Positions 41,960 through 61,601 of a DNA stretch of 64,000 bases are shown here, piece after piece; position 1 is the stretch's first letter; the number at the start of each line of letters is the position of its first letter. The DNA is from Lachnospiraceae bacterium G41. GTDB lineage: Bacteria; Bacillota; Clostridia; Lachnospirales; Lachnospiraceae. The stretch spans positions 1-64,000 of the forward strand of contig FNEU01000005.1 in the NCBI GenBank assembly GCA_900100245.1. The letters run 5' to 3'. The translations under genes and the position numbers were made by a program. The notes under the pieces were generated by a model, which saw only the letters and a list, made by a program, of their open reading frames with translations, was not told where the DNA came from and did not search any database.

Positions 41960-41981
41960 AAAACCGAAAGGAGACAAAGAA

Positions 41982-44639: not shown

Positions 44640-44674
44640 AAACGTGGTTTTTTAATATTTTGGAGGCTACGTTT

Positions 44675-44896
44675 ATGGCTATTTCATATAACAAATTGTG
44701 GAAAAAACTCATTGATGAGGGGATAAATAAAACTCAACTTCGTGAAAAAACTAAGATGAGTAGTAGCACTATGGCGAAAATGGTTAAAAATCAACCTGTT
44801 GCTCTCCCTATTTTAACGAAAATATGTGAGGAATTAAATTGTGATATTGGCGATATTATGGAGTTTATACCTGATAACAATGGAAATGTAAAATAG
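44675..44896 (+). CDS. XRE-type regulator of the BREX-like operon
   Basis: A 73-aa single-domain helix-turn-helix protein: LWKKLIDEGINKTQLREKTK, SSSTMAKMVKNQPVALPILT, CEELNCDIGDIMEF. It belongs to the same Cro/C1-like subtype as the 31811 protein. The start at 44675 has TTGGAGG 8 nt upstream; a TTG at 44660 would include the ribosome site. A small regulator in front of a BREX or restriction operon usually limits expression on entry to a new host. Confidence 0.82.
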   Translation: MAISYNKLWKKLIDEGINKTQLREKTKMSSSTMAKMVKNQPVALPILTKICEELNCDIGDIMEFIPDNNGNVK

Positions 44897-44985
44897 AGTA
44901 ATGTTTTGATAAAAAACAGTTTCAAGATATTTAATTGCGTATTAACGATGACGTCGGATAGGGGAACTGTTTTGGAGTGATGTTA

Positions 44986-47736
44986 ATGGTAAAACAAAGA
45001 CCTTGGGATAAATATGAAGCAGCTATATTGTTGGATGCCTATTTAAGGGTGCGAGATGGTGAATTGAATCGAAAAGAAGCCATTTCATTAGTATCTGACA
45101 AGCTTAGAAGAAGAGCTATTATTTTAGGATTTGATATAGATGAAACCTATCGCAATGAAGCTGGAATACTGTTTCAGATGCACAGCATGGAATCTGCATA
45201 TATGGGATATACCGTTTTAAAGCCGGCATCTAAACTTTTTTTGGATGTTGTTGAAATATGGAAAAACGATAAGGCTGAATTTATGTCAATTTTGCAATTT
45301 GCTATGAATAAATCCGACAACAAATCAGTTGAGGGGGAATTTTTATCGTGGCTTGCGAGAAGAGTAAATGACAAACAATTGTCTGAATTATATATAATGT
45401 TTACTCAGATAGATGATTTTTGCCTTGAACAGGACATATTATATGATCATTTGTTTAGAACAACAGATTTAAAAAAACTATTAGATGTTGAGAAAGCCAT
45501 AAAAGAAAATGAAGTTTTTTTGAAGAAATACAAAAGACAGATAAATAAAATGTTATCAGCGATAAATTTTTATTTATTATACGTAAAAGAAGAAATAATA
45601 GAGAAAGCAAATAGTATTGGTTTGGAGGATAAAAATCAGGGTAAAGAGAACAAAAAAAAGATTTCTTCAGTTAGTTCGCGTATTACGGAGAATAAATCAT
45701 CTCAATTTGTCGACATTAAGAAAAGGCAGAAAGAGTTTACGGATTGGATGATACAAAATAAAACGAATTCATTTACCTCAAAAACATATTTGTCGTCACT
45801 TAGTCTTGCGGGTGAAATCGCGTCTGCCAAAGGGATTATTAATGGAAATATTTATGAAATTCATGATGAAGAACTTCTTAGGGAATCATTAGAAGAATTA
45901 TTGACGATACCGGAATTTTTGAAAAAAAACGAAGAACGATTTAATCAATTAGTTACTTCATGGAAGAAGTATATTGATTTTACGGGCTGCGTTAATTCAT
46001 ATCAAGAATGTGAAGATATAGATTTATATTCTACAAGAAGTATTTCTCAAAACGATAAAAACACTATCTATATGAGGCTTAAATCGATGGTGAACGTATA
46101 TGGAGTTTTGGAAAATGTTAGTTTGGATTGGATAAAGACAAATATAAGAGTAATTGTTGAAAAGGAAGAATTAAGAGAGATTTTAAATGAGTTATCTTGG
46201 GTTAAAAGAGTTGACGAAGATAAATATACCATTATGTTGGATGATGGGAAGAAAAGAGCAGGTGATGAAGAGCAGGAACCCGACCATATAGAGGTAAAAG
46301 TTAATAAAGATATAGATTTGGGATTTAACAAGAATTCGTTTGTGAAAGTTTTGATGATGAGATATCAAAACGGGATGAAGTTTGATTCCATTGATATAGA
46401 AAACTATAAAGAAACTTATCTTGACATTATAGGCGAGGAAATTAATTTATCTGATGAGAAATTGGAAAAATGTCTTCATAAATGCGGAATTATGTATCAA
46501 GGCAGATTGTTTCCGGCAGAGGGAATAATAAATAATAGTGTTCGAGAAAAGTTGATGGATTATATATATTCTAATTTTTCAAATGGAAAAAATGTTCTAT
46601 ATTATAAATCCATTTTATCAGATTTGTCGGATGCTTTTGCATATTGCTACAATCTGACAGATTATAAAATGTTAAAAGCTTACCTTGAATACACATGCGA
46701 GCAAGATGAATTCTATTTTTCTGATGAATATTTATCAAAAGAGAAAAATGTGAGCATAGATCATGAAAGCGAAATAGAAGATTTCATGCTTATGAATAGA
46801 AGGCCGTTATCATATGATGAGATTTATTCGGGTCTGTCTCATATTTCAAAGGATATAATTTTTAATGAGATAAGAAGCAATCCTAAATATTTATTAAACG
46901 AAAAAGAGCATTATTATCATTTTGATATATTTGAACTGTCCTCAGAAGAAGCAGATTTAATTACAGATTATATTAATGAAGAAATATATGATGAAGGATA
47001 TTGTATTTGGTCTAGAATATATAAAAAGATTCAGAATAATCTTCCGATTTTTATTGAGAATAATGCATGTTTATCTTCTTTAGGAATACGAAATGGTCTT
47101 TCGAAGAAGCTAAAAGGTAGATTTCATTTTGATGGAGAAGTGATAAGTTCTTGCAAAGAAGCTCTGAATATGTCTGCAGTTTTCAGATTATTTGGGGAAC
47201 ACCATGCTCCGTTTACAGATGAAGATTTGTATAATTTCTCTAAAGAAGTAAATAGTGGAGGGCCATATTTCGAATCACTATCAGAGACTACGATAAGGGT
47301 AAGCAAAGAATTATTTGTTTCAAGAAAGGATATTACATTTGATGTTCAGTCTGTCGATGAAGCGATTTCAACTTATTTTTCGGGGGAATATGTTTTAATA
47401 AAAGATTTCGATTCTTTCTTGATGTTTCCGACGGTAAATTATGAATGGAATATATTTATGCTGGAAAGCTATTTGATTTATTTCAGCAAGAAATATACGC
47501 TTCTAAATAATGGACGATCGTTAGGAAATGTTGCAGGAGCTGTTATCAAAAAGGGCGGCATATATAAAGATTTTGAGGATTTATGCGCAGATGTAATTGC
47601 AAATAGTGCCTGTGCGTTGACAAAAGATAAGGCGCTTGATTTACTTGCAGAAAAAAATTTATTGACAAGAAAAAGCTATAGCAAAATAGAAAATGCTATT
47701 TCAAAAGCAAAACAAATTAGAAACAGAAGGGGATAA
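44986..47736 (+). CDS. Large unknown protein opening the BREX-like operon
   Basis: A 916-aa soluble protein. Residues 5-65 show a pattern that I have met in large uncharacterised proteins of clostridial defence loci: WDKYEAAILLDAYLRVRDGE, AISLVSDKLRRRAI, YRNEAGILFQM. A Lys/Ser-rich linker (about 205-240) divides it from a long C-terminal part with repeated helical units and winged-helix-like spacing (EDIDLYSTRSIS..., LSYDEIYSGLSHISKDIIF). No catalytic motif is clear. The start at 44986 lies 8 nt after GGAG; GTG and ATG at 44977 and 44980 are closer. It lies 5 nt before the BrxP-like gene, so it is surely part of the operon. It is not a PglX methylase: I see no NPPY motif. Confidence 0.6.
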   Translation: MVKQRPWDKYEAAILLDAYLRVRDGELNRKEAISLVSDKLRRRAIILGFDIDETYRNEAGILFQMHSMESAYMGYTVLKPASKLFLDVVEIWKNDKAEFMSILQFAMNKSDNKSVEGEFLSWLARRVNDKQLSELYIMFTQIDDFCLEQDILYDHLFRTTDLKKLLDVEKAIKENEVFLKKYKRQINKMLSAINFYLLYVKEEIIEKANSIGLEDKNQGKENKKKISSVSSRITENKSSQFVDIKKRQKEFTDWMIQNKTNSFTSKTYLSSLSLAGEIASAKGIINGNIYEIHDEELLRESLEELLTIPEFLKKNEERFNQLVTSWKKYIDFTGCVNSYQECEDIDLYSTRSISQNDKNTIYMRLKSMVNVYGVLENVSLDWIKTNIRVIVEKEELREILNELSWVKRVDEDKYTIMLDDGKKRAGDEEQEPDHIEVKVNKDIDLGFNKNSFVKVLMMRYQNGMKFDSIDIENYKETYLDIIGEEINLSDEKLEKCLHKCGIMYQGRLFPAEGIINNSVREKLMDYIYSNFSNGKNVLYYKSILSDLSDAFAYCYNLTDYKMLKAYLEYTCEQDEFYFSDEYLSKEKNVSIDHESEIEDFMLMNRRPLSYDEIYSGLSHISKDIIFNEIRSNPKYLLNEKEHYYHFDIFELSSEEADLITDYINEEIYDEGYCIWSRIYKKIQNNLPIFIENNACLSSLGIRNGLSKKLKGRFHFDGEVISSCKEALNMSAVFRLFGEHHAPFTDEDLYNFSKEVNSGGPYFESLSETTIRVSKELFVSRKDITFDVQSVDEAISTYFSGEYVLIKDFDSFLMFPTVNYEWNIFMLESYLIYFSKKYTLLNNGRSLGNVAGAVIKKGGIYKDFEDLCADVIANSACALTKDKALDLLAEKNLLTRKSYSKIENAISKAKQIRNRRG

Positions 47737-47741
47737 ATTTA

Positions 47742-50126
47742 ATGTACACTTACGAATGGGATTCTTCAACTGGCGGGTATGTATTAACACCTATGCCGTT
47801 AACTTTTTCGAAGGAACCACGCCCGGTATATTATAAGGAATTGGACATATTAGGTTTTGATAAGTACTGGATTTATGATAAAAATGACAGTTTTCCGTAT
47901 ATGTGGGCGGAGGCTAATAATTATTTTTATCGAGGAAGACTTGTTGCTAAAACCAAAGGAGGATCTGTTTATAATGCTCCTGAAATAGAAATAGTTGAAG
48001 CTCCAGAACCAGAGGGATATCCTTTGCGATATGTAGATATTCCAGCCATGATTAACAAGAATAAAGATATCATGGAACAACTTGAACAGGAAACTATCAA
48101 AAAAATATATAATACTTATATTTCTTACAAAAAGAAGGTAGATGTGTTTTATGTCGCTTTTTCCGGCGGAAAAGATAGTATTGTTGCGTTAGACCTTGTT
48201 CAAAGAGCTTTACCTCATAATGAGTTTAAAGTGTTGTTCGGCGACACTAGGATGGAATTTCCTGATACGTATTCTGTTGTAGAGGAGATTAAACGAATGT
48301 GTTCCGAACTAAAAATAGAATTTATTTCAGCTAAATCGAAAATGTCCCCTTTGGAAACTTGGTCAATTTTTGGACCTCCAGGGCAAACAATGAGGTGGTG
48401 TTGTAGCGTACATAAAACCACTCCTCAAGTGTTAGCCCTTAGAGAATATACAAATAATCCACATTTTAAAGGTATGGCTTTTACAGGTATTAGAGGGGAT
48501 GAAAGTGCCTCAAGAAGTGAATACGATGATGTTAGTGAAGGAGAGAAAATTAGGGGTCAGTTTAGTTGTCATCCGATTTTAGAGTGGAATTCGGCTGAAT
48601 TGTTTAATTATATTTATGACAAAAAACTGATTATGAATGAAGCTTATAAAAAAGGCAACAGTCGTGCGGGTTGTTTGGTTTGTCCTATGGCAACTTACAA
48701 GAATATGTTTTTTAAAGAGGTGGCTTATAAAGAAAGAGTTGGGGATTGTTTATCCACGACAGACTTTAACAATATAATTCTTAGTACCTCTTCTAAACCA
48801 TTATCTTCAAAAAAACAGATAAAAGAATTTATGGAAACTGGAGGATGGAAAGCAAGAAGAAGTGGAAGAGAGTTAAAGATAGCGAAAAACAAATGTTCAT
48901 ATACTTTTGAAAAAGGTGTTTTTGCTATTAGTATTACTGAGATAAAATCAGATTGGAAAGAATGGGCAAAAACATTAGGCAAAGTTGAATATCCATATCC
49001 AGGAACGGTAGAAATTTTATTTGAAAATCAAAAATATATTGGTGAATATCAGGAAGAAGAAAATGGCCTAAGATTTGAGTTCAACATTGAAACAAATACT
49101 AAAACGGACATAAATTTCATGTCAGCGTTTAAAATAATAATGCGAAAAACAGCTTTTTGCGTAATGTGCCAAGTTTGTGAGGCAAATTGCCCACATGGAT
49201 GTATTCATATGATGGATGGAAAGGTAACAATAGACGATAAATGTATAAAATGTAGAAAGTGTCATGAGGTCGTTTATGGGTGTCAATTAGCAAATTCAAT
49301 GAGATTGCCGAAAGGAGAAGGAAAAGTGGCAGGTATTAACAGATACGGGAATATGGGTATTGAATATGGATGGCTAGATTTATATTTTAAATATAAAGAT
49401 GATTTTTGGACATCGAGCGATAATAATTTAGGTTCAAAAAAAATAGAGTACATTGATAAATTTCTTTTAGATAGTGGTTTGGGTAAAAAAGAGAAAAAAG
49501 GTAATAAATACCCCTCTCTGACACGATTTGGTGAAATTATATCAGATATAGGAATTGACACGAGTTTGGCGTGGGCTTTTATTGCTGTGAATTGGTCGTA
49601 TTCTAGTCAATTTGGATGGTGGATTAAGAATATAGAATTGAACAACACCTATTCTCCAGAAGCTATTTATGCTATGTTGGATGATTCGGTAAGTGAAACT
49701 GTAAGAGAACATATTATTTCTGCATATAAGAATACTTTTATTTCAAATGAAATATTAGGTAAGGATCTTGGTTTTGGAGTTTGTGATTATGAAGAGAAGC
49801 GAGGTCGTACTTGGATATCTGTTATTAGATTTCCGTGGGCAAATCCTGATGAAAGAGTAATTTTGTATGCATTATACAAATTTGCAGAGAAGTGTGGAAA
49901 CAGAAAACAATTTACATTAACAGAATTATTAGATAATTCTATCGAAAGAGATGGAATAAGTCCTACTCAAATTTTCGGATTAGATAGGGAAATGATGGAA
50001 AAAATATTAAATGGACTGACATTTAATTATCCGGAGCTGATAGAGGCTAGATTTACTCTTGGATTAGACAGCATAACTTTAAAGAGTGACGTTTCATCAG
50101 AAGAATTGTTGAATCAAATGTTTTAG
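47742..50126 (+). CDS. brxP: BrxP-like PAPS-reductase/DndC-family protein with ferredoxin-like insert
   Basis: A 794-aa protein. The PAPS-reductase/ATP-PPase domain (about 128-325) has the P-loop AFSGGKDSIVALD (SGGKDS at about 141-146), the cysteine pair CCSVHK near 219, TGIRGDESASRS, and CLVCP near 310; DndC and SspD use such cysteines to hold an Fe-S cluster. Residues about 472-515 form a ferredoxin-type insert with CVMCQVCEANCP and CIKCRKCHEVVYGC. The C-terminal 270 residues (MGIEYGWLDLYFKYKDDFW onward) resemble DUF4007, which I recall being linked to PAPS-reductase proteins. In a BREX setting this would insert sulfur, probably as a backbone modification. The 5-nt gap to the previous gene shows coupling. 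Confidence 0.85.
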   Translation: MYTYEWDSSTGGYVLTPMPLTFSKEPRPVYYKELDILGFDKYWIYDKNDSFPYMWAEANNYFYRGRLVAKTKGGSVYNAPEIEIVEAPEPEGYPLRYVDIPAMINKNKDIMEQLEQETIKKIYNTYISYKKKVDVFYVAFSGGKDSIVALDLVQRALPHNEFKVLFGDTRMEFPDTYSVVEEIKRMCSELKIEFISAKSKMSPLETWSIFGPPGQTMRWCCSVHKTTPQVLALREYTNNPHFKGMAFTGIRGDESASRSEYDDVSEGEKIRGQFSCHPILEWNSAELFNYIYDKKLIMNEAYKKGNSRAGCLVCPMATYKNMFFKEVAYKERVGDCLSTTDFNNIILSTSSKPLSSKKQIKEFMETGGWKARRSGRELKIAKNKCSYTFEKGVFAISITEIKSDWKEWAKTLGKVEYPYPGTVEILFENQKYIGEYQEEENGLRFEFNIETNTKTDINFMSAFKIIMRKTAFCVMCQVCEANCPHGCIHMMDGKVTIDDKCIKCRKCHEVVYGCQLANSMRLPKGEGKVAGINRYGNMGIEYGWLDLYFKYKDDFWTSSDNNLGSKKIEYIDKFLLDSGLGKKEKKGNKYPSLTRFGEIISDIGIDTSLAWAFIAVNWSYSSQFGWWIKNIELNNTYSPEAIYAMLDDSVSETVREHIISAYKNTFISNEILGKDLGFGVCDYEEKRGRTWISVIRFPWANPDERVILYALYKFAEKCGNRKQFTLTELLDNSIERDGISPTQIFGLDREMMEKILNGLTFNYPELIEARFTLGLDSITLKSDVSSEELLNQMF

Positions 50127-50137
50127 GAGGAATAAAA

Positions 50138-53100
50138 ATGAGTTATCGCGATTATTTTGATATTGATCCAGATTATTTCCCGCAAGTAGATAAAAAAATT
50201 ATAGAAACGGTACCAGATTTGTGGAAAAAGTTTTATCCGCATCCTTCATTTGTGTCGTTACTTAAATCAACGGTAGATGTTTTAAAAAGAAAACAAAAGC
50301 TGTCCATATGGGTTGATGGTGCTTATGGTACAGGAAAATCACATGCGGTTTTGACCTTAAAAAAATTGATTGAGGCTAACGAGGAGGATACAAAGACATA
50401 TTTCGAAAAATATAAGTTGGATAACTTTTTGTGTAAAGATCTAATGGCCCAAAAAGAGGCGGGCAAAATTTTGGTATGTCATCGTTATGGTTCTTCGGAT
50501 ATAAACAGTGACGTTGATCTTATTGTGGCTTTACAAGAAGGTATCGAAAAATCTCTTGCGGAAAATGGTATCGATAATAAAGCAAATTCATCAATTAGGA
50601 AAGCTCTTATTAGATATTTTGAAAACGAAGAAAATCAGAAGAGTTTTAACATTTTTGCATCAGGATCGTATAAAGAAATCCTTGGCGGAGATATGGCCGA
50701 GGATATTTTAGATAAGCTTAATTCTTATGAGGATGATGCGCTTCGTGCATTAATATCAAAACTGTTTAAAGTGAAAATGGTTAAAGGCAGTTTTTCGTTA
50801 AACGTAGAGGAACTATGTGATTGGATAAGAGAAATAATTGAAAAAAATGATTTATATAATCTAATTTTTATTTGGGATGAGTTTTCAGAGTATTTTGAAA
50901 ACAATTTACATCATTTAACAGGGTTTCAACAAATTGCAGAATTGTCAGCCACGGCTCCGTTCTGTTTAATGATTGTAACACATAAGGCTGAGGGCTATTT
51001 TTCGGATGGTGACCCCGATAAAAAGAAAATATTAGATCGTTTTGTTCCGCCGATACATATTTCTCTTCCAGAGAATATTGCATTTGCATTGATGCATGAA
51101 GCTATGAAAATAACAGAAGATGAATCGTTAGCTTCAAAATGGGAAAAGAACAAAGGCAGCCTTGACAAAAGAACTATGCAAAGCAGAACGGCTGTAAAGA
51201 ATAAAATTGGGTTGACTGATGCTGATTTGTCAAATGTTTTACCGATTCATCCATATGCAGCTTTATTGCTTCAACATATTTCTATTTACTATACTTCAAC
51301 GGCTAGAAGTATGTTTAATTTTATTAAAAATGATGAGGGTGATGAAGTTAAAGCTTTTCAATGGTTTATTGATAATTATGATTTTTCTTCGCAAAATCCA
51401 TTTATTACAGTGGACATGTTATGGAGCTTTTTCTATGAAAGTGGTCAGGACAAACTGGCAACAGGAATAAAGGAAGTTCTGAGCTGCTACACGCCTAAAC
51501 TTAACAAAGAACTAATAGAGGATGAAAAGAGAGTACTAAAGACAATCTTGCTTCTACAGGCTGTTTCAGATAGGATGACGGGAAATAGAGATATATTCTT
51601 ACCTAACGATAAGAATATTACGCTTGCATTCGAAGGAACAGATTTAGAGTTTCCGGCAAAGAATCTTGCAAAAAAATTATTAAACGATCATGTTGTTTCG
51701 AGAACGCCTCTTACAGGTGAAGTATTTTCATATTGCTGCAAAAATACAGGGGCAAGTATCGATTCCACACCTTTTATTCCGGTAGCCAAAGGAAAAACAA
51801 CTAAAGATATGTCCTTTATGACAGGAAGTGATTTGAGAAATACGATTGAGTTGTCAGGGGCATTAAAAGCACGATATGTTTTATCGTACGCAACCTTATC
51901 AGACATAGATAGTGAATTAAAGAAGGCCAATAATCCAGAGGATACTGGAAATAGATTATATGCTATTGCAACCATAGCGCGGGATGATGGGGAGCGTGCA
52001 ACTATCCAAAAAAAGATTAAAGGATTTTTTGAAGCCAATCCAAACTCAGATGTTGTTGTTATAGATGCTTCTAATACGATTTTGGGAGAAAATGCATATA
52101 ATGAATTTCTTGAAAACTATGCTACTGCATTAGCTATCGGAAATAGTGACATTTCAAACAGAAAAATTTATGAAGGGTATGCTACGGATGTATTAAAAGA
52201 TTGGGCAAAAAGGATTAAGAACGGCGACTATTATATTTATTCAACATATGTTAAAGCAGGCGATAGGGTAGCTAATAGTTCTGAGTTAGTGTCTAAACTT
52301 TTAGAAATTGACAAATTTCATTATCCTAATAGTTTAGAAATTGCATTTCCGAATGTTCTTAATACGATGTATGAATCAAGTTCGCTTGCTTCAGGGGCAC
52401 AATGCGGTATTACAGAGGAAACAAAAGGAACTTTTAGATCCGCTAATGAAGCTACAAAACTTGAAAATGCACTAAAAGATGCGTGGAAAGTAGAAGAATA
52501 TTGGAAAAAATCGCATTCCTATATAGCTAACCTGAAAAGAAAAGTTGATGAAATTATTTCAGATGTGTATAAAGACCATGATAGGGTATCCATATCACAT
52601 ATTTATAATATTTTAAAAGCTGAACCTTATGGTTTTATGCCGTGCAATTTGACAGCTTTTATTCTTGGATTTGTGTTAAAAGAATATGCCAATAGTATTT
52701 ATTCATATAGTGATAATATGACAACAGATACTCTTGATACTGAGAAACTTGCAACAATGATTTCGGAAATTATCAAGCAGGAAAACACGCCAGATAAGAG
52801 ATACAAGGATAAATTCATAGTTACATTAACAGAAGAAGAGCGAGCATTTAATAATGCCACTGCACAGGCATTTAATGTAGATCCTAAATACTGTGTTTCT
52901 ATAACTGATACAAGATCCAGGATAAGAGAACAGATGAAAGCCTTCTCTTTCCCGATTTGGCTGATTGAATATGATATGGATGATGTGATATTCAAAACCA
53001 GTAAGGAAATTGTTTGCTCGTTAATAGATAATTACTGTGCAATAGCTAACAATCAAAATGATGGAAAAGGAAAAACTGACAGTGATATTGCACTAGAAAT

Positions 53101-54322
53101 AGGCGAGATTTGTATCAAAAATCCCGAATCTATTGAAGATTTAAAGAATGTCTTAACGAAAGACAGATGCAAACGTGGAATGTTGAAATATCTTGAATCA
53201 TATGATGGAGGAAAACTTGTATCAATTGCAAAATCGGTAGGAGATGGTGGACAGTATATTAACCATTTGGAGTATAAGTTTAGTTCGGATGCAGCAAACT
53301 GGGTTTGGAACAAAGATACTGTACATAGCAAAATTGATGAATTAACGATTGAATATGAGATTATAGATACAAGCAATAAGGTTCTAGCAAAGAATACAAC
53401 ATACATAGAGACAATACGTGCATGGTGCGATAAGATTGGGCAGATCAGATTGGCTTATTCGGTAATTAAGAATAATATTGACGCTGGAAAAGAATTCTAT
53501 GAGATGCTTCGTGATTTGAAAAAAGCAAATAGCTTGCTTGATTCCCAAAAAAAGAAATTCTTAGAATTATTGGTTGCAAATGTTGACAATTTCAGAATAT
53601 TTATGTCTTCGCAAGCGGAGTTATTTGAAAAGTCGTGTTCACATTATCTTGAGGGTCTTACACTTGATGATGTTAGAAATATGTTAGAGGATGATCAGTA
53701 TGGCTTCAAAGGTTCTTATACATCTGAACCTGATAAATACGTAGAAAAAGTTCAAAAAGCGGTTGCATCTTTTAAAGGATCGCTTGAAATTGTTAAACTT
53801 AGAAATCTTTGGAAAGAAAAAACTGGCACAGAACGTCCTAATGACTGGTCAAATCAGTATAATATGCCAATCATGGCCATGGTTCCAGAGCAAGAAACAA
53901 TTATGGCAAGAAAAGCGTTTTCTACAATTAATTCGGGGAAGAATGATTCGGAAGCAATTGAAAGTGCAATGGATTATGTTTCTAAAATGACATATTTTGA
54001 AAAATTAAATAGTCAAGAAGAAAGAGATAAAGCATTTTCGGAGACGCTTTTAAAGGATTATGCGGCATTGTTTGAAAAAGTGGATGATGTTAAAGATTAT
54101 CTAAGAAAACATGTTTCTGAACAACCTCAGTTTTGGCTTGAAAGTAAAGATGTTCAAAACAAAATAAAGGCTTTAGCCTCTGCAACTTATATGAAATCTG
54201 GATATGGAAGGGCCAAAAAAATAATTGATGATATGCCCGCAGAAAAAGTTAAGGAATATCTAAAGCAAATGATTGAGGATAATATTGTTGTTGGTGTTGA
54301 AATCATTAAAGGAAATGATTGA
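50138..54322 (+). CDS. brxC: BrxC/PglY-like large ATPase
   Basis: A 1394-aa protein, within or slightly above the usual size of BrxC/PglY. The Walker A loop is GAYGTGKSHAVL at about 60-67, and Walker B is LIFIWDEFSEYFEN near 241-250, with the sensor-like MIVTHKAEGYF soon after. Long helical and charged regions follow, without further recognised domains. BrxC is an AAA-type ATPase needed by all BREX types. An AGGAGG site lies 6-7 nt before the ATG. It sits between the BrxP-like and PglZ genes, the order expected in the type. Confidence 0.88.
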   Translation: MSYRDYFDIDPDYFPQVDKKIIETVPDLWKKFYPHPSFVSLLKSTVDVLKRKQKLSIWVDGAYGTGKSHAVLTLKKLIEANEEDTKTYFEKYKLDNFLCKDLMAQKEAGKILVCHRYGSSDINSDVDLIVALQEGIEKSLAENGIDNKANSSIRKALIRYFENEENQKSFNIFASGSYKEILGGDMAEDILDKLNSYEDDALRALISKLFKVKMVKGSFSLNVEELCDWIREIIEKNDLYNLIFIWDEFSEYFENNLHHLTGFQQIAELSATAPFCLMIVTHKAEGYFSDGDPDKKKILDRFVPPIHISLPENIAFALMHEAMKITEDESLASKWEKNKGSLDKRTMQSRTAVKNKIGLTDADLSNVLPIHPYAALLLQHISIYYTSTARSMFNFIKNDEGDEVKAFQWFIDNYDFSSQNPFITVDMLWSFFYESGQDKLATGIKEVLSCYTPKLNKELIEDEKRVLKTILLLQAVSDRMTGNRDIFLPNDKNITLAFEGTDLEFPAKNLAKKLLNDHVVSRTPLTGEVFSYCCKNTGASIDSTPFIPVAKGKTTKDMSFMTGSDLRNTIELSGALKARYVLSYATLSDIDSELKKANNPEDTGNRLYAIATIARDDGERATIQKKIKGFFEANPNSDVVVIDASNTILGENAYNEFLENYATALAIGNSDISNRKIYEGYATDVLKDWAKRIKNGDYYIYSTYVKAGDRVANSSELVSKLLEIDKFHYPNSLEIAFPNVLNTMYESSSLASGAQCGITEETKGTFRSANEATKLENALKDAWKVEEYWKKSHSYIANLKRKVDEIISDVYKDHDRVSISHIYNILKAEPYGFMPCNLTAFILGFVLKEYANSIYSYSDNMTTDTLDTEKLATMISEIIKQENTPDKRYKDKFIVTLTEEERAFNNATAQAFNVDPKYCVSITDTRSRIREQMKAFSFPIWLIEYDMDDVIFKTSKEIVCSLIDNYCAIANNQNDGKGKTDSDIALEIGEICIKNPESIEDLKNVLTKDRCKRGMLKYLESYDGGKLVSIAKSVGDGGQYINHLEYKFSSDAANWVWNKDTVHSKIDELTIEYEIIDTSNKVLAKNTTYIETIRAWCDKIGQIRLAYSVIKNNIDAGKEFYEMLRDLKKANSLLDSQKKKFLELLVANVDNFRIFMSSQAELFEKSCSHYLEGLTLDDVRNMLEDDQYGFKGSYTSEPDKYVEKVQKAVASFKGSLEIVKLRNLWKEKTGTERPNDWSNQYNMPIMAMVPEQETIMARKAFSTINSGKNDSEAIESAMDYVSKMTYFEKLNSQEERDKAFSETLLKDYAALFEKVDDVKDYLRKHVSEQPQFWLESKDVQNKIKALASATYMKSGYGRAKKIIDDMPAEKVKEYLKQMIEDNIVVGVEIIKGND

Positions 54323-54337
54323 TAGCGAGGTGGGGTT

Positions 54338-56620
54338 ATGACTCTTGAAAAAATAGAGAAAAGAATTGAAAATCTTTTGACGTCGGATAATCGATGGCCT
54401 ATTGTTGTCGATTTTTCTAATAAGGCGGATATGAAAGAGTTTCTCTATCATTTTAGTGTAGGAGAAAATAAAATACTCTCTGCAGGTGATTTTTGTGGAA
54501 AAGATGGAACACTGAAATTTGAAGAACTGTCTAACCGAATAGAGAAAAATGATAGTGTGATGTTTTTGATTAATCTAACAGGTTATCTGAAACTATGTGG
54601 AGAAGAAATCTTAAAAAATACACTAAAAACTATTATTTCAAAAAGTATAACCGGACATGTAATTATTATTACGTATCAATGTAGGAATTATTTGAAATTT
54701 TCCGACAGCAGATTTGCTGAAAGAGGGCAGATTCTTATTGTTGACGGAGAATTTGATAACTCATCAAATATTTGTTTGATTTCTCCAGAATTGGAAGAAG
54801 CTTTTCTTAATGCATATATTGGATTTGAAAAAATAGGAGAAGCCTATGATAATTGCTACGATAATATTATTTATGTGGCAACTGACGTAAGCAAAAAATT
54901 ATTTAATTTATCGCTTATAAATATTTCTCAATTAAACAATGGATATGATATCTTGTGCGCAAAAGACTCGAGGATAAAGAATGTGCCCGAAAGTTTTGGC
55001 AGCCCTAGCCAATGGAATGGATTGCTTAAGGATATGGGAAAATTTGATTTTGCATTTGTGGCAGAAGAGTTACTTGGGCCGTCATTGAATTTGGTTGAAT
55101 GTGTAAAGCAGTATCCAAGCTATTCAGATAAATTGCAGTGGTTATATTTTATTGCAACATCGATAATGGGTGCGAAAACGGATTCTTATGTTATGCTTGC
55201 AATGGAAAATGCAACGAATTATAAGGATGTTCCGCGTGCCGTTTTTAGAACTATTTTAAATATCAACAGAAAAGATGATGATTTCTTTAAATTATATGAG
55301 GAACGTAAAAATGTTTTAAAATATTTTTCTGCATATTTGGGTGAGGCAGTTGATTTTTGTAAAATAGTTTCCTCTAAACAGGAAGATGCAATTTACTATT
55401 TAACAGATATATTTCAGCCAGAAAAAGAAAAAATGATTGAATGGCTTGACATATATGGATGTAAGTACACAACGGATGAATTAGATGATATCTTCAAAAA
55501 TATTGCTCCGGATATAGCTGCTTATTTATCAAAATATCGATTTAAAAATGATTTTTTAAATGATTATTTTGAAAAGTACAAGTATCAAAAACTGATAAAT
55601 AAATTACTTCCCGAATTTAAAGAGATTGTTGAAAAACAGGCTACTGAGTTGGAATTTGTAAGTTTATTAAAACCAAGAACTCAATTGTTTGACAAGATAG
55701 ATTTAAAACATACTCGTACCTACTTTGTTGATGCATTAGGAGTGGAATATTTGGGGTTTATTCAGTCTAAGTGTAACGAATATGGTTTATTTGCAGATAT
55801 AATGTGCGGACGATGCGAATTACCTTCATTAACATGTTTTAATAAAGATTTTGTAAATGAATGCAATGAGAAGGGATGTCCTATTTCAGACATTAAGGAA
55901 TTGGATGAGATAAAACATCATGGTGAAGATGGATTTGATTATGAAAAGACTAAAACCCCTATTTATCTATTGCGAGAATTAGAAATTATAGATAATTTGC
56001 TCCGGAATATACAGGCAGCAATACTAAACAATAATTATGAAAAAGCAATTATTGTTTCCGATCATGGTGCAAGTAGATTAGCTGTTTTAAATGAAACTGA
56101 AAACATTTGGGAAATGGAGACTAAAGGTGTTCATTCTGGTAGATGTTGCCCCAAAAATGAGATAAATGAGAAGCCTAGTTTTGCGATAGAAGAATCGGAT
56201 TATTGGGTATTAGCAAATTACGACAGATTTAAAGGAAGTCGAAAGGCAAATGTTGAAGTACATGGCGGTGCAACTCTTGAAGAAGTCACAATTCCCATTA
56301 TAGCAATTACTAGATGTATTGATGGAATAGAATCATTTATTCTTGATGAATGTAAAGTTATTACGTTATCAGCAATGGAAATACCTATTCTCAAGGTTTA
56401 TGTTGGAACGATAAGCGATAGTATTACTATTAAGGTGGATGATAAGTTTTATGATGCCGAACCTACTGCAGATAAATATGTTTATGAGGCTAAAATGAAG
56501 GAATGTACGAAGAAAGGAAAATATTCTGCTGATATTTTAAATGGTTCAAATGTATTATCAAGTGGAAATGTATTTGAAATAGATAAAAAGGGAATGAAGG
56601 AAGTCAGTTTGTTTGACTAG
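54338..56620 (+). CDS. pglZ: PglZ, alkaline-phosphatase-fold BREX protein
   Basis: A 760-aa protein. The alkaline-phosphatase-like core lies in the C-terminal half: YFVDALGVEYLGFIQSKCN near 461 contains the first metal-binding Asp, and AIIVSDHGASRLAVL near 571 contains the SDHG motif of the second metal site. The N-terminal half is a helical and strand region typical of PglZ proteins. PglZ is the second protein present in all BREX types; its role is not settled. An AGCGAGGTGGGG site precedes the ATG. It is 15 nt after the BrxC-like gene and 11 nt before the BrxL-like gene. Confidence 0.9.
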   Translation: MTLEKIEKRIENLLTSDNRWPIVVDFSNKADMKEFLYHFSVGENKILSAGDFCGKDGTLKFEELSNRIEKNDSVMFLINLTGYLKLCGEEILKNTLKTIISKSITGHVIIITYQCRNYLKFSDSRFAERGQILIVDGEFDNSSNICLISPELEEAFLNAYIGFEKIGEAYDNCYDNIIYVATDVSKKLFNLSLINISQLNNGYDILCAKDSRIKNVPESFGSPSQWNGLLKDMGKFDFAFVAEELLGPSLNLVECVKQYPSYSDKLQWLYFIATSIMGAKTDSYVMLAMENATNYKDVPRAVFRTILNINRKDDDFFKLYEERKNVLKYFSAYLGEAVDFCKIVSSKQEDAIYYLTDIFQPEKEKMIEWLDIYGCKYTTDELDDIFKNIAPDIAAYLSKYRFKNDFLNDYFEKYKYQKLINKLLPEFKEIVEKQATELEFVSLLKPRTQLFDKIDLKHTRTYFVDALGVEYLGFIQSKCNEYGLFADIMCGRCELPSLTCFNKDFVNECNEKGCPISDIKELDEIKHHGEDGFDYEKTKTPIYLLRELEIIDNLLRNIQAAILNNNYEKAIIVSDHGASRLAVLNETENIWEMETKGVHSGRCCPKNEINEKPSFAIEESDYWVLANYDRFKGSRKANVEVHGGATLEEVTIPIIAITRCIDGIESFILDECKVITLSAMEIPILKVYVGTISDSITIKVDDKFYDAEPTADKYVYEAKMKECTKKGKYSADILNGSNVLSSGNVFEIDKKGMKEVSLFD

Positions 56621-56631
56621 GAGGATTAGAA

Positions 56632-58074
56632 GTGGAAGATAAATTAAGGAATTATTTTGAAGAAATGGTTGTCTATAAAGATTTAAGAAATAGCAATTAT
56701 TTCGCGTCATTAGGATTGCCTGCTTTCTTAAGAGACTATCTTCTAAAAACGTTTAGTGATGATTATGGGCGTTTTGATATGGAACAAGTTTCTGAGTTTA
56801 TAAAAAAGTACATACCTAAAAAAGAAGACTGGATGAGGATAAAAAATCAAATTATATATGAAAATGAAACAGTTCAGATTCTTACCAAAATTTCGGTAGA
56901 TATAAATATTAAAACTGGCGAAATTTCTTTTTCTCTTCCTGACTTTGGTGTTACAGAAAAGGAGACTATGATAGAGCCCTCAATTTGGGAGTTGTACAAA
57001 AACGATCTTGTACAAAGCGGAGAAGTGTGGGGTATTATTAAACTGGGATATCGTCAACCTGACGAAACTGCAAAACCAAAGATTCCAGGAAAAATCAAAC
57101 TGGTGGGATTCAAGAATTTTTGCCCATATACAGTGGATTTAGATTATTTTAAGGATATGAGAAGCCATTTTACAACAGAAGAATGGATTGATATTGTTTT
57201 AGGAGCAATAGATTATAACGCAGATGGATACGAGACTGAATTACAAAAATTGTCTATGTTAACTCGGTTATTGCCTTTTGTTGAAAAAAGAGTAAATATA
57301 ATAGAGCTTGCTCCAAAAGGTACAGGAAAAAGTTATGTTTTTGGCCATATAAGTAAATATGGGATGCTTACAGATGGAGGGAAGGTTACAAGGTCAAAAA
57401 TGTTTTATGATGCTGCTCGAAGAAAGCCTGGATTTATTTGCGGACCAGATTATGTTGCTATCGATGAAGTAAAACTTGTAAGCTTTGGCGATGAAAATGA
57501 AATGAGATCGATTTTACAAGGATACCTGGAATATGGAAAGTTTAATTCGAACGGTTATGATGGCGAGTCAGATGCAGGTGTTGTCTTTCTGGGAAACATC
57601 AAAGAAGAAAAAATGAACGAATATGAATATATGTTATCTGAATTACCGACACTATTCCAAGAAACAGCTTTGCTTGATAGAATCCATGGATTTGTAAAAG
57701 GTTGGGATATTCCTCGAATGAACGATAGTCTAAAAATTACTGGATGGGCATTAAATTCGGAATATTTTTGCTCGATTTTGCATGAACTAAGAGGTGATAC
57801 CAGTTACAGAGCAATCGTTGAACGAATAGTGGATGTTCCTGAACATGCAGATACTAGGGATACAGAAGCGATAAAGCGCATTGCTACCGCTTATCTAAAG
57901 CTTCTCTTCCCGCATGTTAGGAGTGAGAATGATGTAGATCGACAAGATTTTACAGATTATTGTTTAACACCTGCAATGCGCATGCGCAGAATTATAAAAT
58001 TACAACAGGGAATGGTCGATACGGAATATAAGGGAAAGGATGTTCCTTTCTTGGCCGTAAAGGGGTTGCAATAA
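56632..58074 (+). CDS. brxL: BrxL-like AAA protein without Lon-type protease domain
   Basis: A 480-aa protein. The N-terminal half matches BrxL (NYFEEMVVYKDL, GLPAFLRDYLL), the AAA core has ELAPKGTGKSYVFGHI (Walker A at about 227-234) and YVAIDEVKLVSF (Walker B near 275), followed by LLDRIHGFVKGWDIPR, a BrxL hallmark. Type I BrxL proteins are longer, about 680 aa, with a C-terminal Lon-like protease fold; here the chain ends soon after the AAA part (AMRMRRIIKLQQGMVDTEYK). The GTG start follows AGGAGG. BrxL forms DNA-translocating rings, so the short form may still be active as a motor. Confidence 0.85.
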   Translation: MEDKLRNYFEEMVVYKDLRNSNYFASLGLPAFLRDYLLKTFSDDYGRFDMEQVSEFIKKYIPKKEDWMRIKNQIIYENETVQILTKISVDINIKTGEISFSLPDFGVTEKETMIEPSIWELYKNDLVQSGEVWGIIKLGYRQPDETAKPKIPGKIKLVGFKNFCPYTVDLDYFKDMRSHFTTEEWIDIVLGAIDYNADGYETELQKLSMLTRLLPFVEKRVNIIELAPKGTGKSYVFGHISKYGMLTDGGKVTRSKMFYDAARRKPGFICGPDYVAIDEVKLVSFGDENEMRSILQGYLEYGKFNSNGYDGESDAGVVFLGNIKEEKMNEYEYMLSELPTLFQETALLDRIHGFVKGWDIPRMNDSLKITGWALNSEYFCSILHELRGDTSYRAIVERIVDVPEHADTRDTEAIKRIATAYLKLLFPHVRSENDVDRQDFTDYCLTPAMRMRRIIKLQQGMVDTEYKGKDVPFLAVKGLQ

Positions 58075-58271
58075 TGGAAAAAGAATGTTTGGCTTGTGGA
58101 AAAAAACCATTAGATAAAAATACGATAGGAATAAATAAAAAACTAATTGGCAAAAGTATTAAAACCTTTTATTGCATGGGTTGTTTAGCTGATTATTTAG
58201 GGTGCAGCGTTGAGGATTTAATTGAAAAAATAGAGGAATTTAAAGAGGAAGGTTGTACTCTTTTTGAGTAA
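58074..58271 (+). CDS. Small zinc-ribbon protein in the BREX-like operon
   Basis: A 65-aa protein with two CxxC knuckles, CLACGKK near residue 5 and FYCMGCLADYLGC near 35, and a helical end with another cysteine (FKEEGCTLF). The ATG overlaps the stop of the BrxL-like gene (TAATG), so it is translationally coupled. It sits directly before the desulfurase and could carry sulfur or metal from it to the BrxP-like protein; this is inference from position and cysteines. Confidence 0.65.
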   Translation: MEKECLACGKKPLDKNTIGINKKLIGKSIKTFYCMGCLADYLGCSVEDLIEKIEEFKEEGCTLFE

Positions 58272-58275
58272 TATT

Positions 58276-59418
58276 ATGAAAAGTATAATATATGCTGATA
58301 ATGCAGCTACTACAAAACTTGATATAGAAGCTTTTGAAGAGATGAAGCCATTCTTAACGGAGGAATATGGAAACCCTTCACAACCCTATTCATTTGCCAA
58401 AAGTCAAAAAAATGCTTTGAAAAAATCTAGAGAAATAATTGCAAGGAGCATTAACGCTGAACCAGAACAAATATTTTTTACCTCAGGTGGGACGGAAAGC
58501 GATAACTGGGTTATTAAGGAGTTCGGAGTACCTACAGATGAAAAAAGAATAATTACTTCTTCGATTGAACATCATGCAATAATAAATGCGTGTGAATGCA
58601 TGAGGGCGAGTAATCGTGCAACTGTTACGTTTCTTCCGGTTGATAGTAAGGGATTGGTTTTGACAAAGACATTGGAAGAAGCTCTTAAGTATGACAGACA
58701 ATCAAATTCATACCCTGCATCGACATTAGTTTCAATAATGATGGCTAACAATGAAATAGGAACAGTACAAGATATTAAAGAGTTATGCAGAATATCACAT
58801 AATCAAGAGGCTCTTTTTCACACAGATGCAGTTCAAGTTGTTGGTCACTTACCCATAGATGTGAAGGAATTGGGAATCGATTTTTTATCAGCATCTTCAC
58901 ATAAATTTAATGGTCCGAGAGGAATTGGATTTTTGTATATTAAGAATGGAAATCTTTCAATCCTTCATAATGGTGGGATGCAAGAAAAAGGGTTGCGTGC
59001 GGGAACTGAGAATGTTGCGGCAATTGTAGGCATGGCAAGAGCTTTGGAAAACAATTGTAAAAGAATTAAGGAGAATGCAGAACATATTTCTAGTCTTGAA
59101 AGAAAACTTTTGAATAGCCTTTCGGACTTGTCGTTTGTAAGAAATGGATCAAATAATTGTCTTCCAGGAAATATAAGCCTATCATTTAAAGGGTTTGAAG
59201 GCGAACTTATTTTACATAGAATGGATCTGATGGGAATATGTATATCAACCGGATCTGCGTGCGATAGTGTTAATACACAAACGTCACACGTTTTAAAGTC
59301 AATTGGTCTTGAAGAAGAATATGCAATTGGGACAATTCGAATTAGTTTAGGGAAGGATAATACAGAACAAGACGTAGATGAGATTGCTTATGCTTTGCAC
59401 AGGATTCTTAATTCGTAA
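58276..59418 (+). CDS. Cysteine desulfurase (IscS/NifS/DndA-like)
   Basis: A 380-aa PLP enzyme. IIYADNAATTKLD opens the fold, TSGGTESDNWVI and SSIEHHAI follow, the PLP lysine lies in SASSHKFNGPRGIGFLY (about 208), and the catalytic cysteine in STGSACDS (about 327), on a mobile loop as in IscS. The family takes sulfur from cysteine and passes it to acceptors; DndA and SspA play this role in DNA phosphorothioation. The ATG at 58276 gives the normal family start; a TTG at 58264 would add four residues. It ends the operon, 4 nt after the zinc-ribbon gene's stop. Confidence 0.93.
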   Translation: MKSIIYADNAATTKLDIEAFEEMKPFLTEEYGNPSQPYSFAKSQKNALKKSREIIARSINAEPEQIFFTSGGTESDNWVIKEFGVPTDEKRIITSSIEHHAIINACECMRASNRATVTFLPVDSKGLVLTKTLEEALKYDRQSNSYPASTLVSIMMANNEIGTVQDIKELCRISHNQEALFHTDAVQVVGHLPIDVKELGIDFLSASSHKFNGPRGIGFLYIKNGNLSILHNGGMQEKGLRAGTENVAAIVGMARALENNCKRIKENAEHISSLERKLLNSLSDLSFVRNGSNNCLPGNISLSFKGFEGELILHRMDLMGICISTGSACDSVNTQTSHVLKSIGLEEEYAIGTIRISLGKDNTEQDVDEIAYALHRILNS

Positions 59419-59558: not shown

Positions 59559-59882
59559 ATGCCTGAATTTGATTTTAAGAAGAGGATGGCTGAGATCTGC
59601 CAGAAAAAGGATATAAGCCTTTATCGTTGGTGGAAGGGAACGGAGATATCACAAAGTACCTTTTACAGCCTCGCTAATGGCAGAACCAAGCGCCCGAGTT
59701 GGACGGTGATTCAACAGATATGTAAAGCGGCTGATATGGATATCGAAACATTCTTTTCAAGCGGAAAAACAGATGATTATATTCCATTATCCCGTAAAGC
59801 CGACCTGATTGCACTTGGGAATGAACCTATTGCGATATACAGCAATGTTATAGGTTATTATAAAGGGATAAAGAACAAATAA
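59559..59882 (+). CDS. XRE-type regulator
   Basis: A 107-aa protein. FKKRMAEICQKKDISLYRWW, ISQSTFYSLANGRTKRP and IQQICKAADMDIETFF are the helix-turn-helix; a short C-terminal end (PIAIYSNVIGYYKGI) follows. It is monocistronic and lies between the defence operon and the mobilisation genes. The upstream ribosome site GAGAGG is 9-10 nt away. It may regulate the minus-strand mob genes or the integrase. Confidence 0.8.
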   Translation: MPEFDFKKRMAEICQKKDISLYRWWKGTEISQSTFYSLANGRTKRPSWTVIQQICKAADMDIETFFSSGKTDDYIPLSRKADLIALGNEPIAIYSNVIGYYKGIKNK

Positions 59883-59906: not shown

Positions 59907-59933
59907 GCGGGGTTTAATCACCCCGCTGTTTTT
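59907..59933. terminator. Bidirectional terminator
   Basis: GCGGGGT / ACCCCGC stem with a 6-nt loop, followed by TGTTTTT. The stop codon of the minus-strand relaxase gene lies at its loop, so it likely serves both converging genes. Confidence 0.75.
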
Positions 59934-61305
59934 GTGCGTCTTTATTCTTTTCGTTTGTTTCTTTTTTCGGATTATCTTTGTTGAAGAAACGGTTGAGAGT
60001 ATCCTGATGCCGTTCGAGCTCTTTAAGCTCTTTTTGTATTGATTCGTTTTCGTTTTTTATTTCGGATCTTCTTTCTTCCAAATCAGATAATTCATCTCTC
60101 AGTCGGGAATAACATTCATCTGATGGCACCAAACCATGAGAAGCAAGAATAGCAGCTGCTCCATCAAAAAGAGTAAGCTTGCTTTCGAATTGCATGAGGT
60201 ATTCTTCCGGATTCCTTGAATGCTCATAGGCATTCTTATATGCTTTTGTATCCAGGTAAATTTGCATATAACGGAGCTGTTCGGAAAGTATTCTTTTCTC
60301 TTTATCGATGGATACGATTTCGCTACGATTGCTGGCGCATTGTTCCTTAAGAAGATTGATTTTTTCTTCAAGTTCGATGGAGGAACCTACAGAGGCATAT
60401 GTACTTGCCGCAATCTTTAGGTTTGTAAGATTAGCCCAGTTTGATAATCCAGGATTAGCGGTAAATTTGTCAGAAGAGGTATCTATAAGATTCTTCTCGT
60501 TAAGAGGAAGGGCCTTTTGCTTTTTAATCCAATCTGCTCTTGATTGTAAGTGTTTTTCAATTCTTTCTATGATTTCTTCTTTTGTATATCCCTTGCCTAA
60601 AGTACGGTGTGAACCCCTGATGAAATTGCCGTATCCCTGGGGCTTGAAGGATATGTATTTCGGAGCATCCTCGCCCAATTCAAAACCTTTTATTTCATAA
60701 TTCTTATTTCTCATACGTTTAAGAAAGTCTTCATAATCCTCGGCAAAGCGAATGCAGTCGAAGATGTCTTTCTTGAGATTCAACTTGAAAGAGTTGTTCT
60801 TTTTCTCGGCTTCCCATTCATTATATTTTTTCCCTTTTTCAACTCCGGGTTTAATAACGGATAACCCATGTTCTTTGCATAAACGGTCGGATATGTTTCG
60901 TAGATTCCGATAAGAAGCTCTGTTTGAATAATACCTCTGATTTTTCAAATAATCAGTTGAACAGAAGATGATATGGTTATGCACATGCTCCTTGTCTATA
61001 TGCGTAGCCAGGACGAAAGCTCTGGAGGAGCCGAGAAGTTCTGAGGCAAATTCCTGACCTATCTGATGTGCTTCTTCAAATGTGACTTCGCCAGGAGCAA
61101 AGGACTGGATCAAGTGAAAAGCAGGTATGGCGTTTTCTTTTTGTAATGCTTTTGTATTATCCATATAAAAATCCAGGGCGGCAGTTTCTATCCCGCATCC
61201 GTGGTGATCGATTAATATGCGATTGTCAGTTTTATGCGGATTACATATATAATCTACTGATTTTTGAACTGTAGATCTGATAGCATGGATTTTTGTGATT
61301 GCCAT
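59914..61305 (-). CDS. Relaxase / mobilisation nuclease (MobA/VirD2-like)
   Basis: A 463-aa protein. The N-terminal relaxase domain has SVDYICNPHKT (candidate catalytic Tyr19), FHLIQSFAPGEVT, and the metal-binding motif THIDKEHVHNHIIF (His at about 102, 107, 109, 111), followed by YYSNRASYRNLRNISDRLC. This is the MOB-P / Relaxase (PF03432) pattern. The C-terminal half is charged coiled coil. It nicks oriT and stays bound to the transferred strand. The start has GGAGG 4 nt upstream. It overlaps the MobC-like gene by 52 nt. It may serve the conjugation apparatus at the left, or a separate mobilisable element at the right. Confidence 0.9.
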   Translation of the reverse strand: MAITKIHAIRSTVQKSVDYICNPHKTDNRILIDHHGCGIETAALDFYMDNTKALQKENAIPAFHLIQSFAPGEVTFEEAHQIGQEFASELLGSSRAFVLATHIDKEHVHNHIIFCSTDYLKNQRYYSNRASYRNLRNISDRLCKEHGLSVIKPGVEKGKKYNEWEAEKKNNSFKLNLKKDIFDCIRFAEDYEDFLKRMRNKNYEIKGFELGEDAPKYISFKPQGYGNFIRGSHRTLGKGYTKEEIIERIEKHLQSRADWIKKQKALPLNEKNLIDTSSDKFTANPGLSNWANLTNLKIAASTYASVGSSIELEEKINLLKEQCASNRSEIVSIDKEKRILSEQLRYMQIYLDTKAYKNAYEHSRNPEEYLMQFESKLTLFDGAAAILASHGLVPSDECYSRLRDELSDLEERRSEIKNENESIQKELKELERHQDTLNRFFNKDNPKKETNEKNKDAQKQRGD

Positions 61306-61595: not shown

Positions 61596-61601
61596 AATCA
61601 A

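What the first reader, a model, noticed from the sequence alone, without database searches (positions are those of the whole stretch)
44675..59418. BREX type 4-like operon joined to a sulfur-supply pair
Seen: PAPS-reductase/DndC-type protein, BrxC-like ATPase, PglZ, BrxL-like AAA protein, zinc-ribbon protein and cysteine desulfurase in one operon, no PglX methylase. Known: BREX type 4 replaces PglX with a PAPS-reductase (BrxP) gene; Dnd and Ssp systems use a desulfurase plus a PAPS-reductase-like protein to make phosphorothioate DNA. Inference: this operon marks self DNA with sulfur, and the desulfurase and zinc-ribbon protein supply and relay it. A BREX with its own desulfurase would connect BREX and phosphorothioation directly.
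Basis: partly seen in the sequence, partly recalled or inferred. Interest (0 to 1): 0.92.

Follow-up and report, generated by a model that had tools for sequence, protein, structure and literature searches.

The report
Type 4 BREX phage-defence operon
A bacterium carries an intact anti-phage operon of a kind already known to tag DNA with sulfur, including the sulfur-supply enzyme, and beside the known genes sits a large, fast-changing, unnamed gene that usually travels with its nearer relatives and probably reads DNA.

Summary
44660-59418 is a tight operon: small HTH, ORF1 (919 aa, no family), BrxP (PAPS-reductase type), BrxC, type 4 PglZ, BrxL, a 65-aa zinc-ribbon-like protein (ZnR) and a cysteine desulfurase; no PglX-like match. 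It is a type 4 BREX on a mobilizable island.

So this is a new member of a known kind.

What I did not find in print is ORF1. A relative lies just before brxP in 13 of 13 usable order loci and 75 of 76 loci near this BrxP, but in only 7 of 12 loci chosen by PglZ and 1 of 6 Ssp loci. It is predicted to be a string of winged helices and was the least conserved of five proteins in 34 of 36 pairs.

BrxP has a variable middle between conserved ends. ZnR is not tied to the desulfurase but is fused to BrxP-like proteins, also in phages. No PT chemistry or phage resistance was tested.

The parts
44660..44896 (+). small Cro/C1-type HTH (78 aa), probable operon regulator
   Evidence: HTH_26 E 3e-18; a similar HTH within 700 bases before ORF1 in 9 of 80 loci
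44977..47736 (+). ORF1, 919 aa, predicted tandem winged-helix protein; unnamed gene just before brxP
   Evidence: no family in PADLOC or NCBIfam and none above cut-off in Pfam; relatives before brxP; AF2 pLDDT 88.3, C-terminal half alone 94.4, pTM 0.78
47742..50126 (+). brxP: PAPS-reductase domain, variable middle, ferredoxin-like Cys region, C-terminal part with weak SspB similarity
   Evidence: PDLC02510 E 2.1e-237; SspB E 0.021; SGGKDS, RWCC and two 4-Cys motifs
50138..54322 (+). brxC ATPase
   Evidence: PDLC02485 E 1.6e-217
54338..56620 (+). pglZ, type 4
   Evidence: NF033445 436 bits, cut-off 140; PDLC02554 E 1.7e-86
56632..58074 (+). brxL AAA+ protein
   Evidence: TIGR02688 406 bits; PDLC02505 E 1.5e-205
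58074..58271 (+). ZnR, 65-aa zinc-ribbon-like protein with CxxC, CxxC and a fifth Cys in GCxLF
   Evidence: five Cys invariant in 12 of 12 aligned; five-Cys pattern in 66 of 70 BREX ZnRs
58264..59418 (+). cysteine desulfurase, NifS/DndA-like
   Evidence: DndA PDLC02657 E 3e-120; Lys 214 and Cys 333 (STGSAC) invariant in 8 of 8 aligned (their catalytic roles are recalled)
59559..59882 (+). second small HTH downstream; membership in the operon uncertain
   Evidence: HTH_26 E 7e-11

Best explanation
An intact type 4 BREX operon carried by a mobilizable island. Shown here: the gene families, tight spacing, conserved motifs, and recurrence of the gene order in other genomes. From published work on the type: BrxP with its partners puts sulfur into the DNA backbone and the system acts against phages. 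Inferred: PglZ and BrxL carry out the block on unmarked DNA; the desulfurase supplies sulfur to BrxP, as PT donor or to build its Fe-S clusters, and can be replaced by a host desulfurase; ZnR is a partner of BrxP; ORF1 is a DNA-reading subunit of winged helices that helps choose the target sequence or senses unmarked (or foreign) DNA; the variable middle of BrxP shares in target choice. The confidence given is for 'type 4 BREX that writes PT'; for ORF1 as a DNA-reading subunit I would say about 0.45.
For: Families. Gene order ORF1-BrxP-BrxC-PglZ-BrxL-ZnR-CysDes in 35 of 54 loci with full core and at least 1500 bases after it, and the same without CysDes in 11 more. PT by type 4. Two more desulfurase-like genes of 43% and 40% identity, and three weaker matches, in the same genome. 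ZnR fused to BrxP-like proteins. ORF1: tandem winged helices (with matches in 71, 72, 103, 104); HARE-HTH in 2 of 46 members and in 3 of 8 relatives scanned (one of these, L072, is among the 46); lowest identity of five proteins in 34 of 36 non-identical pairs, which share loci; found at 1 of 6 SspD loci. BrxP: in 28 pairs chosen from those with BrxL at least 78% identical, mean identity 77 and 73% (1-130 and 131-320), 39 and 47% (330-460 and 521-690), 79% (700-794).
Against: No chemistry, no phage assay. ORF1 is not needed by every type 4 locus: no family member was recognised in 5 of 12 usable loci chosen by PglZ, in L125 or in a Methanosphaera plasmid. Fast change and winged helices fit a regulator or a phage-facing sensor as well. 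For whole ORF1 Foldseek gave no match at E 0.001 or better; the best aligned matches are single common winged helices (Z 9.9, 54-55 residues), which say little on function, and the packing of the domains is uncertain (pTM 0.53). The ORF1 allele does not follow the BrxP allele: with this window, L064 has BrxP 78% and ORF1 49%, L044 58% and 53%. The variable part of BrxP could reflect weak constraint.
Confidence: 0.8

Rival explanations
1. The desulfurase mainly loads the Fe-S clusters of BrxP, and the sulfur for the DNA comes by another route; ZnR is an assembly or structural partner of BrxP rather than a sulfur relay.
For: BrxP carries twelve conserved Cys: RWCC in 88 of 88, RxGCxxCP in 87 of 88, two 4-Cys ferredoxin-like patterns in 88 of 88 (the 88 include one record twice). 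The desulfurase is dispensable (39 of 54 loci; 2 of 12, one of them cut just after ZnR) whereas ZnR is kept more often (53 of 54; 8 of 12). Non-BREX ZnRs, many beside alpha-galactosidase genes, keep the five-Cys pattern in 16 of 18.
Against: A desulfurase that loads clusters and one that donates PT sulfur need not differ, so this is not exclusive. The desulfurase matches the DndA and SspA models about equally well.
Confidence: 0.35
2. ORF1 is an operon regulator (transcription factor-like) and not part of the DNA-marking or blocking machinery.
For: Two of 8 relatives scanned carry an RNA polymerase alpha-CTD-like domain (L057, L143), one of them also a sub-threshold sigma-70 region 4 match (L143); in L322 a sigma-70 factor gene stands in its place; a small HTH gene shows that regulation is present nearby.
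Against: Most relatives are about 460-1490 aa, large for a regulator; in 70 of 76 loci it ends within 60 bases before or 50 bases after the point where BrxP begins, so it belongs to the same operon; the small HTH already offers a regulator; HARE-HTH in some relatives points to modified DNA (PMC10853773 passage).
Confidence: 0.3
3. ORF1 is variable cargo that rides on the operon, such as a separate defence gene inserted at a preferred place.
For: High divergence, variable length, not recognised in some type 4 loci; one of 46 members matches the PADLOC candidate PDC-S57 (E 1.2e-8); shorter relatives of its C-terminal half stand away from BREX in L053 and L062.
Against: Same family and same place in 13 of 13 order loci and 75 of 76 loci near this BrxP; 12 of the 14 order genomes with full-length BrxP are among the 18 of 392 with an ORF1 match, P 7e-17.
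Confidence: 0.15
4. BrxP does sulfur or electron chemistry other than backbone phosphorothioation.
For: BrxP differs from DndC by an extra domain and a Cys-rich region (PMC12839542 section 34); DNA of this organism was not analysed.
Against: PT is reported for the type; the PAPS domain is related to SspD and DndC.
Confidence: 0.06

Closest known systems
BREX type 4 (brxPCZL) as described in PMC12839542 section 34 and PMC11931770
   Same: BrxP (PAPS reductase), BrxC, PglZ4, BrxL, no PglX, desulfurase and small zinc-finger protein
   Different: ORF1 is not mentioned in the sections and passages I read; supplementary files could not be opened
Lachnospiraceae bacterium IMSAGC_012 locus (L064, BLMD01000378.1)
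   Same: same order from ORF1 to desulfurase; BrxP 78%, BrxL 89% identical
   Different: ORF1 only 49%; brxC is read as two frames there
Ssp systems (SspABCD)
   Same: homologues of the PAPS reductase SspD, the ATPase SspC and the desulfurase; BrxP end weakly like SspB
   Different: PglZ and BrxL are present here; the ORF1 family was found at 1 of 6 SspD loci
Dnd systems
   Same: DndA-like desulfurase, distant DndC similarity
   Different: no DndB, DndD or DndE match among the nine proteins scanned

Membership tests
BREX type 4 | PglZ of type 4 | tested here: met
   NF033445 436 bits, cut-off 140
BREX type 4 | BrxP (PAPS-reductase type) in place of PglX | tested here: met
   PDLC02510 E 2.1e-237; no methylase family listed for the 15 proteins scanned
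BREX type 4 | BrxC and BrxL | tested here: met
   PDLC02485 and PDLC02505, TIGR02688
BREX type 4 | DUF4007/SspB-like DNA-binding part fused to BrxP | tested here: inconclusive
   SspB E 0.02 over 686-778 and PDLC02511 over 533-718; Pfam DUF4007 found nothing in the genome, but nor in any control genome
BREX type 4 | phosphorothioate in DNA | not testable with these tools
   needs LC-MS or iodine cleavage
BREX type 4 | phage resistance | not testable with these tools
   needs plating
Dnd | DndC with DndD and DndE | tested here: not met
   best hit of BrxP is BrxP, DndC only E 6e-7; no DndD or DndE among the nine proteins scanned
Ssp | separate SspB, SspD and SspC without PglZ or BrxL | tested here: not met
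   BrxP and BrxC match their BREX models far better than SspD and SspC; PglZ and BrxL present
known family for ORF1 | match to a curated profile | tested here: not met
   window ORF1: none in PADLOC or NCBIfam, only a sub-threshold DUF1344 match in Pfam; among 46 members HARE-HTH in 2, two integrase SAM-like families in 1 each, PDC-S57 in 1
sulfur-relay protein (ZnR) | persulfide carried on a Cys between desulfurase and BrxP | not testable with these tools
   only the conserved fifth Cys and fusions to BrxP-like proteins are seen

The most novel reading that the evidence does not exclude
A large subclass of type 4 BREX has an unreported subunit, ORF1: a multi-winged-helix, HARE-HTH-related protein encoded just before brxP, which reads target sequence or PT status and, together with an exchangeable middle region of BrxP, sets which DNA is marked or blocked. 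Phages have taken the BrxP-ZnR pair, sometimes fused, apparently without BrxC, PglZ or BrxL, perhaps to mark their own DNA.
Probability: 0.35. Interest if true: 0.75.

Novelty: new member of a known kind. Interest (0 to 1): 0.5.

Why it matters
The headline link between BREX and DNA sulfur is already published, so the operon itself is a good example and not a discovery. It matters as a pointer: experiments built on brxPCZL alone may leave out a gene that is nearly always present in this branch, and how type 4 BREX picks its PT sites is, in what I could read, open. ORF1 and the variable middle of BrxP make that question testable by deletion and swap. Phage-borne BrxP-ZnR genes suggest a possible counter-defence by self-marking.

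Tried and rejected
A first search of genome contigs with ORF1 alone found no relative, since it relies on short exact peptides; searching with the BrxP alignment brought the loci. Plasmids held no ORF1 relative, phages one, in a record that has a whole type 4 operon. PDB sequence searches with the ORF1 and ZnR profiles gave nothing better than E 0.12. Foldseek and VIA matches to ORF1 are led by SelB, UFL1-complex and Zalpha winged helices; I do not read a function from them. Pfam PF08665 missed the window's PglZ and rang elsewhere in the genome below its cut-off; NF033445 is the right model. I first thought ORF1 universal in type 4; the sample chosen by PglZ showed that it is not, and the claim was cut. 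'ZnR belongs to the desulfurase' was rejected. A 386-aa frame holding ZnR in L070 looked like a fusion but is ZnR with an out-of-frame extension over brxL, by my reading. The 493-aa gene before brxP in L322 is not an ORF1 relative by hhalign (probability under 1%, against 81% for L327 as a positive control) but a sigma-70 factor. The left edge of the island was not found: the related genome G336 has other DNA there.

Rows dropped before counts: L324 and L326 (contigs end early) from the PglZ sample; L297 (PAPS-reductase gene without an SspC match) from the Ssp loci; L058 (cut at the contig start) from the order loci. Overlaps left in: L318 and L320 of the PglZ sample have contigs of the same length as L108 and L104 of the 80-locus sample and are probably the same records; L046 of the order sample equals L088. 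In the 80-locus sample four loci have under 600 bases before brxP and are not in the 76. L319 of the PglZ sample has a shortened brxP and may be a broken locus; it was counted.
Full report
What is there. The region 44660-59418 is one compact + strand operon: HTH, ORF1, brxP, brxC, pglZ, brxL, ZnR, desulfurase. The families are clear for BrxP, BrxC, PglZ (type 4) and BrxL. The desulfurase is NifS/DndA/SspA-like without reaching the cut-off of any of the 25 NCBIfam models listed, with a conserved lysine (214) and the STGSAC cysteine (333). ZnR and ORF1 have no assigned family. No PglX-like methylase matched among the 15 proteins scanned.

Surroundings. A MobA-type relaxase (59914-61305, - strand), MobC (61254-61601, - strand), a DUF6462 protein (62901-63173) and, running past the window, a gene that reads by eye as a Tn916-type tyrosine integrase (L194 1851-3089, contig 63850-65088; not scanned against a library) follow the operon. 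Against a genome of the same genus (G336) the shared chromosome resumes at contig position 67644 at 99% identity, so the operon lies in an island that carries mobilization genes. The left edge was not found. The closest named relatives of the operon are Lachnospiraceae; I take the host to be one, by inference.

What is known. PMC12839542 (sections 20, 34 and part 1 of 35 read, other passages by search) treats type 4 as PT-based, reports the desulfurase in 255 of 457 taxa as a possible sixth core component, and notes a small zinc-finger protein with it. [quoted passage not shown] Yuan et al. was not held and is known to me only through citations. ORF1 is not mentioned in what I read of these papers; the searches listed no title or abstract start that points to it, and only the papers named here were opened. 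Supplements could not be opened, so ORF1 may be there.

ORF1, distribution. In 392 genomes of the order, 18 have an ORF1 match and 14 have full-length BrxP (my reading of the match list); 12 are the same genomes (P 7e-17). Locus by locus with blastp, 13 of 13 loci with DNA before brxP have an ORF1 relative there, in 12 directly and in L055 with a 222-aa frame between; the fourteenth (G182, L058) is cut by the contig end (the weakest E-values are 7e-15, twice, and 6e-12). In an independent sample of 398 genomes of the phylum chosen by PglZ4, 12 loci besides the window's own were usable: ORF1 in 7, ZnR in 8, desulfurase in 2 (L321 ends just after ZnR). A Methanosphaera plasmid with type 4 BREX shows neither ORF1 nor ZnR. 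So ORF1 is near-universal in the branch around this BrxP and missing from others. As a contrast, 5 of 6 SspD loci lack it; the sixth, L059, has it in two frames, one cut by the contig end.

ORF1, nature. AlphaFold2 with 46 sequences gives mean pLDDT 88.3 but pTM 0.53 (domain packing uncertain); the C-terminal 471 residues alone give 94.4 and pTM 0.78. Secondary structure and matches show repeated winged helices; the best single match is a Zalpha-type winged helix (Z 9.9, rmsd 1.4, 55 residues; Z 9.9, 1.2, 54), and SelB's tandem winged helices match over 121-122 residues (Z 8.3 and 8.4, rmsd 5.3). Foldseek gives no match at E 0.001 for the whole protein and four for the C-terminal half, to UFL1-complex chains and SelB. 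Pfam finds HARE-HTH in 2 of 46 members and two integrase SAM-like families in one member each. Of eight relatives scanned three have HARE-HTH (L126 with three copies; L327; L072 under the cut-off, which is also among the 46) and two an RNA polymerase alpha-CTD-like domain (L057, L143). PMC10853773 describes HARE-HTH as recognising DNA with modified bases (passage). Among 38 pairs of loci with BrxL at least 78% identical, two were identical throughout; in 34 of the other 36 ORF1 is the least conserved of ORF1, BrxP, BrxC, PglZ and BrxL, the exceptions being L068-L080 and L048-L099 (my count from the listing). This fits a recognition or phage-facing subunit; it does not prove one.

BrxP. In 28 such pairs the mean identity is 77% (1-130), 73% (131-320), 39% (330-460), 57% (461-520), 47% (521-690) and 79% (700-794). 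The pattern is allele-like: against the window, L064 has 63 and 78% in the two variable parts, L044 29 and 34%, although BrxL is 89 and 93% identical. Some pairs (L057-L143) are not variable there. I read it as an exchangeable recognition region, by analogy with restriction systems; pairs share loci and are not independent.

ZnR. The five-Cys pattern is in 66 of 70 BREX ZnRs and 16 of 18 others. ZnR is present in 53 of 54 loci with full core and at least 1500 bases after it, the desulfurase in 39, and no locus of the 80 has the desulfurase without ZnR; the 14 with ZnR alone have no desulfurase on either strand of the stretch held. Of seven non-BREX ZnR loci whose neighbours were scanned, five lie beside a GH27 alpha-galactosidase, one beside a gene with weak glycosidase similarity, and one is a fusion to a PAPS reductase. 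In viral contigs L198, L200, L201 and L204 ZnR is fused to the end of a BrxP-like protein that lacks the C-terminal part; L200, L201 and L204 have a second BrxP-like gene (broken into frames in L204) followed by a separate ZnR, and L203 has one such gene with ZnR. None of the five shows BrxC, PglZ or BrxL in the stretch held. L201 is a phage by its helicase, exonuclease, endolysin and tail-fibre genes. These fusions tie ZnR to the PAPS reductase. In the separate ZnRs of L201 and L203 one zinc-ligand Cys is His while the C-terminal Cys is kept. A sulfur relay is possible but unproven.

Mechanism, with what is shown and inferred. Shown: an intact gene set, conserved motifs, operon structure, recurrence. 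Published for the type: PT writing and antiviral activity. Inferred: sulfur from cysteine via the operon's or a host desulfurase (two paralogues of 43% and 40% identity in this genome) to BrxP, with ZnR as partner; BrxC as motor and scaffold; ORF1 and the BrxP middle as DNA readers; PglZ and BrxL as executors.

Verdict. Observation confirmed; interpretation partly supported and mostly known; new member of a known kind, with ORF1 as the part worth following.

Noticed in passing
L198, L200, L201, L203, L204 (IMG/VR contigs); more copies among L328-L341: Viral contigs carry one or two BrxP-like genes without BrxC, PglZ or BrxL in the stretch held, fused to or next to a ZnR; 13 different contigs match, ZnR and neighbours checked in five, phage genes typed in one.
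   Followed up: partly
L276 13088-27546 (MT835511.1): A record called Bacteriophage sp. from human stool holds a complete ORF1-to-desulfurase type 4 operon; it may be a mobile element or a mislabelled contig.
   Followed up: partly
L177, L178, L184, L186, L190: Relatives of ZnR lie beside GH27 alpha-galactosidase genes in genomes of the same order (five of seven loci scanned); why is unexplained.
   Followed up: partly
L189 7005-8213: A 402-aa PAPS-reductase-like protein fused to ZnR within a run of small same-strand genes that looks phage-like by eye.
   Followed up: partly
L322 13627-15108: A full sigma-70 factor gene stands 28 bases before brxP, in the place of ORF1; it may be a chance neighbour.
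   Followed up: partly
L196 6659-12013: brxP of this viral contig is split by two 438-aa frames, possibly inserted elements.
   Followed up: no
window 39243-42740: PIN, DUF2971, WYL and HTH genes before the operon, perhaps further defence or regulatory cargo of the island.
   Followed up: no
G000:C14:139381-139557 (L001): A sub-threshold PglZ-domain match elsewhere in the genome, in a 498-aa frame.
   Followed up: no
contig C11 about 67644 (L194 about 5645): Edge of the island against G336, which carries other DNA at the same place, so the site looks like an insertion hot spot.
   Followed up: partly
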